The notes below the pieces were generated by a model that saw only the letters and a list, made by a program, of their open reading frames with translations, searched no databases and had not been told where the DNA came from. DNA of 44,522 nucleotides from Actinomycetota bacterium (GTDB taxonomy: Bacteria > Actinomycetota > CADDZG01 > WHSQ01): the NCBI GenBank assembly GCA_009380005.1, contig WHSQ01000024.1, forward strand, positions 1 through 44,522. The letters run 5' to 3'. This document shows positions 37,940 to 40,446 of this stretch, one piece after another. Position 1 is the first letter of the stretch. Every line of letters begins with the position of its first letter. Both the position numbers and the translations under genes were made by a program.

Positions 37940-38502
37940 TTGAACTCCCCGATCAGGACGGCATCCTCGCCGTCCAGCTCCTCGACGTGAACCTTTACGA
38001 CTTCTTCCGACGCCGTCGGCAGGTTCTTGCCGACGTGATCGGCGCGTATGGGAAGCTCGCGGTGGCCGCGATCCACGAGCACGGCGAGCCGGATCGCCTT
38101 GGGGCGTCCCATGTCGAGCACCGCGTCGAACGCGGCTCGGATCGTGCGCCCCGTGTAGAGGACGTCGTCGACGAGCACCACGATCTTCCCGTCCAGGTCG
38201 CCCGGGACCGTCGTCGCCTCGAGGTTCCGGGGCCCCCTCAGCGCCACGTCATCGCGGTAGAGCGAGACGTCCAGGGCCCCCGACGGCAGATCGACCCCTT
38301 CGAAGGAAGCGATGGTGTTCGCGACCCGATCCGCCAGCGGCGCCCCGCGGGTGCGGATACCGACGATCACGAGGTCCTCGCTGCCCTTGTTGCCCTCGAC
38401 GATCTCGTGTGAGATGCGGATGAGAGCTCTGCGGATCTCGTCCGGGCCCATGACCCGGGTCTTGAGCTGGAACTCGGCGCCGCCGGCGGCTTGAGCCGGC
38501 AT
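37936..38502 (-). CDS. pyrR: PyrR, pyrimidine operon regulator / uracil phosphoribosyltransferase
   Basis: RNA-binding regulator that senses UMP/UTP and also shows UPRTase activity in known members. The 188-aa product has the PRPP motif [38 protein letters not shown] and SLYRDD. The ATG at 38502 is directly preceded by an in-frame TTG; both lie right after the U-run of the leader terminator, and the GGGGAGG ribosome-binding site is inside the 3' arm of that hairpin. First gene of the operon, fitting self-control through the leader. Confidence 0.96.
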
Positions 38503-38503
38503 C

Positions 38504-38532
38504 AAAAAACGCCTCCCCGGGACGAGGAAGCG
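38504..38532 (-). terminator. attenuator terminator at the pyrR start, also masks its RBS
   Basis: On the minus strand CGCTTCCTC (38524-38532) pairs with GGGGAGGCG (38510-38518), nine pairs including two G-U, and is followed by six U residues (38504-38509) that run into the pyrR start codon. The 3' arm holds the pyrR Shine-Dalgarno sequence, so the same hairpin could stop transcription and block translation. Confidence 0.8.
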
Positions 38533-38561
38533 CCGGCCGCTAGGTATGACAAGACTCGTGC

Positions 38562-38594
38562 TCCTTTCCGGCCTCGCGGGGCCGATTTAAAGGA
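38562..38594 (-). promoter_or_regulatory. PyrR-binding stem-loop in the pyr leader
   Basis: On the minus strand TCCTTT ... AAAGGA flanks a CGGCC/GGCCG upper stem with an AAAT bulge and a loop reading CCCGCGAGGCC. This fits the established PyrR-binding loop pattern (A/U)UCCNGNGAGG(C/U)U closely. It lies about 30 nt before the terminator hairpin of pyrR. Confidence 0.8.
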
Positions 38595-38607
38595 CCGTTG
38601 GGGACAG

Positions 38608-38648: not shown

Positions 38649-39710
38649 TCAGGACGAACAGCGCACCGAGGTGACCGGGGGCAGGTGAGCGGCGGCGAGG
38701 GCCCAGGTCGCTCCCTCGTCGCCGGAGGAGTAGACCTCGCCCTGCTGGGTCCCGAAGTAGAGGCCAAGTGGGTTGCGGCCGTCGTGACAGAACGCCTGCC
38801 GAAGGATCGTTGGGAACGCGTTCTCCTGCGGCAGCCCGTCCCTACGGGCGTACCACGACCTACCCCGGTCCCGGGTCTCGAACACCCGCAACTTCCCCTC
38901 CGGCGTGACCCGGTCCTCGGCGCCGGTCAGGGGGATGACGAAGGCCCGGTCGGGATCGTGAGGGTCCACCACCAGGGGGAATCCGAAATCGCTGGGCAGC
39001 CCGCGTCCGATGTCGTCCCAGGTTTCACCTGCGTCGTCCGAGCGGTAGACGCCGCCGTGGAATTGCATGTAGAGCGTGTCGGGTTGCAGGGGCGCACGAT
39101 GCATGTTGTGGACGCAGAGGGCCAAGGCGTCCTCGCGTGCATCCTCGGGGAGGTAACCGGCCACCAGGCCCTCGACGCCCCGCCGCCACGAGTTGCCTCC
39201 ATCCTCCGAGAGCCACACCCCCGCCGCCGATATGCCCACCGCGATCCGGGACGGGTCCCCCGGCCACGTGCAGATGGAATGCAGGCACTGGCCACCCGCC
39301 CCGGCTCCCCAGTCCGGACGGCTCGGAACGTCCCACAGCGCGGGATTGATGGCCCACGACTTGCCCCCGTCCTCGCTGCGGAAGAGAGCCGCCGGAGCGA
39401 CCCCGGCCCAGAGGACGTCTTCCTCCTCGCCCGCCGCGATCACCCAGGTCCGTTCGACGGTGGCGCCGGCGTCTGCCGGGAACGCCGGGCCCTCGGACTG
39501 TTGCCATTCCGCGAGCGGGTCCTCGGTATGGAAGACGTGAGGCCCGAAGAACCCATTCGTGACCGAGGCCAGGTAGCGCCCCGAGCGCTCGTCGCGCACG
39601 GCGAACTCGCACACCGACCCTTCGAACTTCCGGTCGACGACCTGCATCGGGCCGCCCGGCTCCCCGCGAAGGATGACCAGACCCTTGTTCGTGCCTACGA
39701 GAACCTCCAT
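38649..39710 (-). CDS. BNR-repeat (sialidase-like) beta-propeller protein
   Basis: 353-aa protein built of repeats with Asp-box (SxDxGxxW) turns: SEDGGKSW, SEDGGNSW, SDDAGETW, TRDRGRSW and SGDEGATW. This is the beta-propeller pattern shared by sialidases, YVTN/BNR proteins and photosynthesis-assembly factors. No signal peptide is present, and the sialidase Arg triad or FRIP motif is not evident, so glycosidase activity is doubtful. The ATG shares one base with the stop of the MoaD-like gene (TGATG), so the two are probably co-translated. The function of the pair is unknown to me. Confidence 0.85.
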   Translation of the reverse strand: MEVLVGTNKGLVILRGEPGGPMQVVDRKFEGSVCEFAVRDERSGRYLASVTNGFFGPHVFHTEDPLAEWQQSEGPAFPADAGATVERTWVIAAGEEEDVLWAGVAPAALFRSEDGGKSWAINPALWDVPSRPDWGAGAGGQCLHSICTWPGDPSRIAVGISAAGVWLSEDGGNSWRRGVEGLVAGYLPEDAREDALALCVHNMHRAPLQPDTLYMQFHGGVYRSDDAGETWDDIGRGLPSDFGFPLVVDPHDPDRAFVIPLTGAEDRVTPEGKLRVFETRDRGRSWYARRDGLPQENAFPTILRQAFCHDGRNPLGLYFGTQQGEVYSSGDEGATWALAAAHLPPVTSVRCSS

Positions 39711-39973
39711 CAGCCGCCTCCCGAGATAGCCGGCAAGACCTGGATGCGATCCGCTTCCGCGATGGCGGCCTCCACCGGGGCGCGTTCCCCGTTCACGAAG
39801 ACGTTCACGTGTCGTCGGATGCTGCCGGTCTCGTCCAGGATCCAGCCGGAGAGCCCCGGGTAGCGCCGCTCCAGATCGGACAGGACCTGTCCCAGCGTCG
39901 AGCCCTCGGAAACGACTGCAGCTCCGGTGCCGGCCCGCTGCCGGAGCTGGGAGGGAAGATGCACGACCGCCAT
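39710..39973 (-). CDS. MoaD/ThiS-like ubiquitin-fold protein with C-terminal GGG
   Basis: 87-aa beta-grasp protein. The pattern MAVVHLPSQLRQRAG ... VLSDLERRYPGL ... VNVFVNGE ... ADRIQVLPAISGGG fits the MoaD/ThiS family. The C-terminal glycines are those that family members use for thiocarboxylation or conjugation. No MoeB/ThiF-type activating enzyme, moaE or thiG is nearby, so sulfur transfer for molybdopterin or thiamine is not supported by context. Co-translated with the beta-propeller gene; nusB lies upstream. Confidence 0.88.
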   Translation of the reverse strand: MAVVHLPSQLRQRAGTGAAVVSEGSTLGQVLSDLERRYPGLSGWILDETGSIRRHVNVFVNGERAPVEAAIAEADRIQVLPAISGGG

Positions 39974-39990: not shown

Positions 39991-40446
39991 CTACTCGGCC
40001 ACGCGCCTCTCCACGACGCGACCCAGGACCCCATTGATGAACCGGCCCGAATCGTCCGTGGAGAGCGCCTTCGCCAGTTCGACGGCCTCGTTGATCGCGA
40101 CGGCGACGGGGACATCGTCCCGCCACAACAGCTCGAAGATAGCCATGCGCAGCAGGGTCCGATCCACGACCGGCATGCGCTGGATCGCCCACTTGTCCGC
40201 GACCTCCGCGATGAGCGCATCGATGTCTGCCTGGTGCTCCTGAACCCCCTCCACGAGGGTTCGGGCGTAGGCCAGCACCGCAGGAACGGGCTCCACGGTG
40301 GACCGGGACCCGTCCTCGTCGGACGCGGCCAGCACCCAACCGCCCCGCCGGCGGGCCTCGAACGCCTCCGTCGGGAGCTGATCACGGATCTCGGCTTCGT
40401 AGAGCACGTCCAGGGCCAGCCGTCTGGCGTCGCGACGCTCCTTCAT
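39991..40446 (-). CDS. nusB: transcription antitermination / rRNA processing factor NusB
   Basis: Binds boxA RNA with NusE (S10) in rRNA antitermination; a boxA-like site is in this window at 583-610. The 151-aa helical protein has RRDARRLALDVLYEAEI-type N-terminus (here ERRDARRLALDVLYEAE), IQRMPVVDRTLLRMAIFELL and VAINEAVELAK ... RFINGVLG. It follows efp, a common order. Confidence 0.96.
   Translation of the reverse strand: MKERRDARRLALDVLYEAEIRDQLPTEAFEARRRGGWVLAASDEDGSRSTVEPVPAVLAYARTLVEGVQEHQADIDALIAEVADKWAIQRMPVVDRTLLRMAIFELLWRDDVPVAVAINEAVELAKALSTDDSGRFINGVLGRVVERRVAE

What the first reader, a model, noticed from the sequence alone, without database searches (positions are those of the whole stretch)
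38649..39973. Beta-propeller plus diglycine ubiquitin-like protein pair
A BNR propeller without signal peptide or sialidase residues is co-translated with a MoaD/ThiS-like protein ending GGG, and no activating enzyme or known sulfur-transfer partner is near. The pair could be a conjugation or sulfur-carrier system of unknown purpose.
Basis: inference. Interest (0 to 1): 0.6.

Follow-up and report, generated by a model that had tools for sequence, protein, structure and literature searches.

The report
Ubiquitin-like protein paired with beta-propeller
Many bacteria keep a small ubiquitin-like sulfur-carrier protein next to, or fused to, a seven-bladed propeller protein of unknown function; the pairing is too widespread to be chance and probably marks an undescribed sulfur-transfer step with the propeller as the receiving enzyme.

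Summary
An 87-aa MoaD/ThiS-type protein (39973-39710, -) overlaps by TGATG a 353-aa Asp-box propeller (39710-38649, -). The pair is conserved: a same-strand neighbouring or fused MoaD partner was found in 56 of 68 evaluable Actinomycetota loci and 13 of 15 Pseudomonadota loci. The order flips several times, and trees suggest at least two joint horizontal transfers. In 12 distinct loci the two are one open frame, MoaD-[S/T]GG-linker-propeller; several have no internal start, and the GG is kept. No other neighbour recurs across clades. The propeller has invariant non-sialidase residues (K9, W134, H144, H201, Q216, H218, R304), placed by topology on one face, and is closest to 3b7f, a structure with no known function. 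The genome holds one E1 (rhodanese-ThiF), elsewhere, and separate ThiS and CysO loci. Best reading: a carrier plus acceptor-enzyme pair, like MoaD-MoaE or ThiS-ThiG, with the propeller as acceptor; fused or tailed precursors need trimming, as MoaX does. The pairing is shown; the chemistry and substrate are inferred. Protein conjugation is not excluded. One Chromatiales locus lies in a molybdenum-cofactor cluster, so a link there is possible.

The parts
39710..39973 (-). MoaD/ThiS-type ubiquitin-like protein, 87 aa, ending I-S-G-G-G
   Evidence: 70-row partner alignment
39716..39721 (-). codons of the conserved diglycine (residues 85-86)
   Evidence: 69 of 70 aligned partners have [STA]GG here; the one exception is a truncated match whose frame ends AGG
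39713..39715 (-). codon of the extra C-terminal Gly after the diglycine (tail of one residue)
   Evidence: most non-fused relatives in the window's clade carry a tail of 1-3 residues, one carries about 27
39708..39712 (-). overlapping stop and start, TGATG
   Evidence: sequence
38649..39710 (-). seven-bladed Asp-box (BNR) beta-propeller, 353 aa, family of PDB 3b7f; invariant K9, W134, H144, H201, Q216, H218, R304
39991..40446 (-). nusB, 17 bases upstream of the MoaD start on the same strand; the aroKB-aroQ-M24 peptidase-efp-nusB run leads into the pair
   Evidence: aro genes read from the translations, not scanned
38501..38597 (-). PyrR-type attenuator (below Rfam gathering score) with terminator-like hairpin 38534-38508, separating the pair from pyrR-pyrB-pyrC-carA-carB
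   Evidence: Rfam RF00515, 43.8 bits, E=3.9e-4, gathering 54

Best explanation
The two genes form one functional module: a ubiquitin-like sulfur carrier and its dedicated acceptor enzyme, here a seven-bladed Asp-box propeller. Shown by computation: conserved adjacency in either order, natural fusions, joint inheritance, invariant C-terminal GG, and invariant polar residues in the propeller. Inferred: (1) where residues follow the GG (the window's extra Gly, longer tails, or the fused propeller), a peptidase such as the genome's JAB protein frees the GG end; (2) the genome's rhodanese-ThiF E1 adenylates and thiocarboxylates that end; (3) the loose C-terminal tail enters the propeller's central pocket, lined by K9, H144, H201, H218 and R304, as related Asp-box propellers bind free C-terminal tails; (4) sulfur passes to an unknown small substrate bound there.
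For: Adjacency in 56/68 evaluable Actinomycetota and 13/15 Pseudomonadota loci. Arrangement (upstream, downstream, fused, absent) changes at least 13 times by parsimony while pairing persists. L103/L106 and L083, from Actinomycetota, fall with Pseudomonadota in both the propeller and MoaD trees, fitting transfer as a unit. Fusions keep GG, with no internal start in L044 and L046. Precedent: MoaX, a MoaD-MoaE fusion, must be cut at Gly82-Ser83 to work, and its Gly81 is needed for cutting (PMC4326299); DRJAMM cuts a MoaD-MoaE fusion (PMC8832034). JAB found in 19/20 carrier genomes tested, E1 in 66/69. Invariant residues lie at D-A or B-C ends of strands in the model, one face by standard propeller topology. 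Ycf48-D1 peptide and sortilin complexes are fold neighbours; sortilin binds a C-terminal carboxylate through R292 and S283 (PMC3115958).
Against: No substrate, sulfur transfer or complex has been shown. The two domains are joined in the fusion model by a linker of pLDDT below 50, so no interface is predicted. Propellers without a neighbouring MoaD (7 Streptomyces-type, 3 Nocardioidaceae and others) keep the same invariant residues, so the propeller may act alone or with another carrier.
Confidence: 0.5

Rival explanations
1. Protein conjugation: the MoaD partner is attached to proteins through its GG end, as archaeal SAMPs or Urm1 are, and the propeller is the receptor that picks targets or a conjugate reader.
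For: The sequence is near SAMP1 (57.1 bits, cut-off 60). Propellers are common protein-binding platforms (general knowledge). JAB peptidases are present in nearly all carriers tested.
Against: No dedicated E1, E2, E3 or JAB recurs next to the pair. The invariant His, Lys, Arg and Gln residues look like a small-molecule or catalytic pocket.
Confidence: 0.15
2. A branch of molybdenum-cofactor work: the carrier supplies sulfur for molybdopterin or for a later step in Mo-enzyme maturation, with the propeller as accessory.
For: In Chromatiales L009 the propeller lies in mobA-moeA-moaB-propeller-yqeC-moaD-moaA (genes named by reading the translations), and the same contig carries FdhD- and MoeB-like genes. 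MoaE is in 67 of 69 propeller-bearing Actinomycetota genomes against 97 of 177 others.
Against: Confounded by phylogeny: in the window's own family MoaE is as common without the propeller (7/7) as with it (8/9). None of the L009 Mo genes recurs near other pairs. The window protein is far below the moaD equivalog cut-off (21.3 against 66.15). In L009 the MoaD is 776 bases away, past another gene, and groups loosely with CysO and the thrC-linked carrier, so it may be that organism's ordinary MoaD.
Confidence: 0.15
3. The propeller handles the carrier itself: a hydrolase, deconjugase or holding protein for the carrier's C-terminus rather than a sulfur acceptor.
For: Fold neighbours include tail-binding propellers Ycf48, sortilin and DAIP. 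Fusions place GG next to the propeller.
Against: Orphan propellers keep the same residues without a neighbouring carrier. No metallopeptidase motif was looked for or seen.
Confidence: 0.12
4. Ordinary neighbours in an operon with no joint function.
For: In the window the pair sits at the end of a housekeeping run of aro, efp and nusB genes.
Against: Conserved adjacency in two phyla, both gene orders, fusions and apparent joint transfer; no other neighbour recurs.
Confidence: 0.03

Closest known systems
PDB 3b7f (reut_b4987), Ralstonia eutropha, 'putative glycosyl hydrolase with BNR repeats'
   Same: Same propeller family: 35% identity, TM 0.91/0.88 to the window model; listed as a seven-bladed Asp-box propeller with function not known (PMC2716378)
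   Different: Nobody has reported a carrier partner for it as far as the searches went; its neighbourhood was not examined here
MoaD-MoaE (molybdopterin synthase) and its fusion MoaX
   Same: Carrier with GG end next to or fused N-terminally to a second protein, GG kept inside the fusion (PMC4326299)
   Different: Partner is a propeller, not MoaE; MoaE is encoded elsewhere in the genome
CysO-CysM-Mec (thiocarboxylate cysteine synthesis)
   Same: CysO is the nearest solved carrier; likely uses the same type of E1
   Different: The genome has a separate JAB-CysO-CysM locus; no CysM or JAB beside the pair
SAMP1 / archaeal small modifiers
   Same: 57.1 bits to NCBIfam SAMP1, near the cut-off of 60
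   Different: Below cut-off; bacterial; propeller partner
Sortilin Vps10 and Ycf48 Asp-box propellers
   Same: Asp-box propeller fold; sortilin binds free C-terminal tails in its tunnel (PMC3115958)
   Different: About 13-16% identity; ligands and cellular place differ

Membership tests
ThiS/MoaD ubiquitin-like carriers (PF02597) | Pfam ThiS domain over the curated cut-off | tested here: met
   52 bits, cut-off 22.5, residues 4-86 of 87
ThiS/MoaD ubiquitin-like carriers (PF02597) | C-terminal diglycine | tested here: met
   [STA]GG in 69 of 70 partners, the other truncated; in the window followed by one extra Gly
ThiS/MoaD ubiquitin-like carriers (PF02597) | activation by a ThiF/MoeB-type E1 | not testable with these tools
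   an E1 gene exists in the genome; activation needs biochemistry
MoaD of molybdopterin synthase | TIGR01682 moaD equivalog score | tested here: not met
   21.3 bits against 66.15
MoaD of molybdopterin synthase | linked to moaE | tested here: not met
   moaE is on another contig, C122
CysO of the CysM pathway | linked to cysM and a JAB peptidase | tested here: not met
   those sit with another carrier on C77
ThiS of thiamine synthesis | TIGR01683 thiS | tested here: not met
   no match at E<=0.01; the genome's ThiS is on C377
SAMP1 | NF041918 equivalog cut-off | tested here: not met
   57.1 against 60
Asp-box beta-propeller of the 3b7f family | fold and sequence match to 3b7f | tested here: met
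   E=5.9e-55; TM 0.91/0.88
Sialidase / secreted glycoside hydrolase | signal peptide or export | tested here: not met
   first model strand is residues 2-7; no signal-peptide program was run
Sialidase / secreted glycoside hydrolase | catalytic Arg triad, Tyr and Asp of sialidases | tested here: inconclusive
   only R304 and, mostly, R223 (an Asp-box residue) are conserved Arg; no structural superposition on a sialidase

The most novel reading that the evidence does not exclude
A bacterial ubiquitin-like conjugation system in which a beta-propeller picks targets for a GG-ended modifier, made in some lineages as a modifier-propeller precursor cut at GG, as eukaryotic ubiquitin precursors are.
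Probability: 0.12. Interest if true: 0.85.

Novelty: new variant of a known kind. Interest (0 to 1): 0.6.

Why it matters
Each known thiocarboxylate carrier works with a particular acceptor enzyme (MoaE, ThiG, CysM and a few others). A widespread carrier whose partner is a propeller points to an undescribed sulfur-transfer or modification step in many Actinomycetota and some Pseudomonadota. It also offers a function for a structure-genomics orphan (3b7f) and a second kind of GG-containing carrier fusion in bacteria besides MoaD-MoaE. The partner, the activating enzyme and the candidate peptidase are all identified genes, so it can be tested directly.

Tried and rejected
Chance adjacency: rejected by the survey. 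A dedicated E1, peptidase or other third gene beside the pair: none recurs across clades. Secreted glycosidase: no room for a signal peptide, invariant residues not those expected. Literature linking MoaD with BNR, sialidase or propeller: no relevant paper in the held library (Iyer et al. 2006 has no such term). Reading an interface from the fusion model: linker too uncertain and coordinates not available. Neighbour clustering by BLAST gave two chained clusters holding the pair and its shadow frames, so only the rest was used. Hidden MoaD near orphan propellers: none found. A better carrier placement by tree: too few columns for firm deep branches.

Full report
What is there. The window carries, on the minus strand, an 87-aa MoaD/ThiS-type protein (39973-39710) whose stop overlaps the start of a 353-aa Asp-box propeller (39710-38649). 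They follow nusB by 17 bases, after a housekeeping run of aro genes, an M24 peptidase and efp. Downstream lies a PyrR-type attenuator (Rfam 43.8 bits, below its gathering score of 54, E=3.9e-4) with a terminator-like hairpin, so the pyr operon that follows is probably a separate unit.

The parts. The carrier scores 52 bits to Pfam ThiS (cut-off 22.5), is nearest in the PDB to CysO, and falls just under the SAMP1 cut-off and far under the moaD cut-off. The propeller's only strong PDB match is 3b7f from Ralstonia, which a review of Asp-box propellers lists as a seven-bladed protein with function not known (PMC2716378). AlphaFold models of the window propeller (pLDDT 88.8) and of a natural fusion (86.6) confirm the fold.

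Conservation. Of 246 Actinomycetota genomes, 69 have the propeller at E<=1e-20. I fetched 69 loci; one ends at a contig edge, and 56 of the other 68 have a MoaD-type partner adjacent or fused. Of 299 genomes in the Pseudomonadota sample 15 have it, 13 with the partner. The exceptions include all seven Streptomyces-type loci; Nocardioides and Friedmanniella loci from another search also lack it. The partner may lie upstream, downstream or in the same frame; parsimony needs at least 13 changes of state, although the tree is a quick one. Actinomycetota rows L103, L106 and L083 group with Pseudomonadota rows in both trees, which fits transfer of the pair as a unit. No third family recurs beside it.

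Fusions. In 12 distinct loci (L003, L004=L041, L005=L047, L040, L043-L046, L048, L054, L056, L066) the frame runs from MoaD through [S/T]GG and a linker of about 4 to 25 residues into the propeller. L044 and L046 have no ATG, GTG or TTG between GG and the first strand. L003 is a short contig of an Acidobacteriota bin lying in an otherwise actinobacterial clade, so its binning may be wrong. Many non-fused carriers of this clade have 1-3 residues after GG; the window has one. In the other clades most end at GG exactly. The nearest precedent is MoaX: cleavage at Gly82-Ser83 is required and Gly81 is needed for cutting (PMC4326299); in Deinococcus a JAMM peptidase does this for a MoaD-MoaE fusion (PMC8832034).

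Possible active site. Over 72 propellers grouped as having a partner and 17 without, K9, W134, H144, H201, Q216, H218 and R304 are invariant or nearly so, apart from gaps. In the window model K9 and H218 fall in B-C turns, and H144, H201, R304 and W134 at or before the starts of inner strands; in a standard propeller these are on one face (established topology; not checked on coordinates). The residues are kept in orphans too, so the activity may not depend on a neighbouring carrier.

Genome context. The window's genome has seven ThiS-domain genes: thiS by thiO, a JAB-CysO-CysM locus, a carrier behind a threonine-synthase-like gene, three further MoaD/ThiS-like genes, and this one. One strong E1 is present, a rhodanese-ThiF protein on another contig, and presumably serves them all. 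JAB is found in 19 of 20 carrier genomes tested (17 over cut-off) and a strong ThiF in 66 of 69.

Mechanism. Shown: pairing, fusion, conserved GG, conserved polar residues. Inferred: trimming, thiocarboxylation, tail insertion in the propeller, sulfur transfer to an unknown substrate. Sortilin, a related propeller, binds free C-terminal carboxylates in its tunnel (PMC3115958), which makes tail insertion plausible but does not test it.

Molybdenum. In Chromatiales L009 the propeller sits among mobA, moeA, moaB, yqeC, moaD and moaA (named by reading the translations), with FdhD- and MoeB-like genes on the same contig. MoaE presence is associated with the propeller across the phylum (67/69 against 97/177, Fisher p=4e-12), but this is confounded by phylogeny and vanishes within the window's family. 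No other pair has these neighbours. I rate this rival at 0.15.

Verdict. A real, widespread, apparently undescribed carrier-propeller module: a new variant of a known kind. Absence from the held open-access library is not proof that it is unreported.

Noticed in passing
L001:1111-2270 (G000:C99:29505-30212): The genome's only strong E1 (rhodanese-ThiF) has an in-frame TGA at codon 307, where relatives would be expected to have Cys (ELAPT-U-SEAGVLG), with the frame intact beyond; about 15 other genomes in the survey, mostly of the same family or class, show one TGA in the same domain. Probably a selenocysteine E1.
   Followed up: partly
L034:5092-6132: A SelD-like (selenophosphate synthase) gene beside the JAB-CysO-CysM locus, named by reading the translation, which fits selenoprotein synthesis in this genome.
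   Followed up: no
L009:3350-9125: Chromatiales molybdenum-cofactor cluster with the propeller between moaB and yqeC.
   Followed up: partly
L032:2977-4496: A MoaD/SAMP1-like carrier directly behind a threonine-synthase-like gene; over the SAMP1 cut-off.
   Followed up: no
window 38501-38597: PyrR-binding attenuator upstream of pyrR, below Rfam's gathering score but with a terminator-like hairpin.
   Followed up: partly
L074-L080: Streptomyces-type propellers without a neighbouring carrier; a uracil-DNA-glycosylase-like frame follows in several.
   Followed up: no
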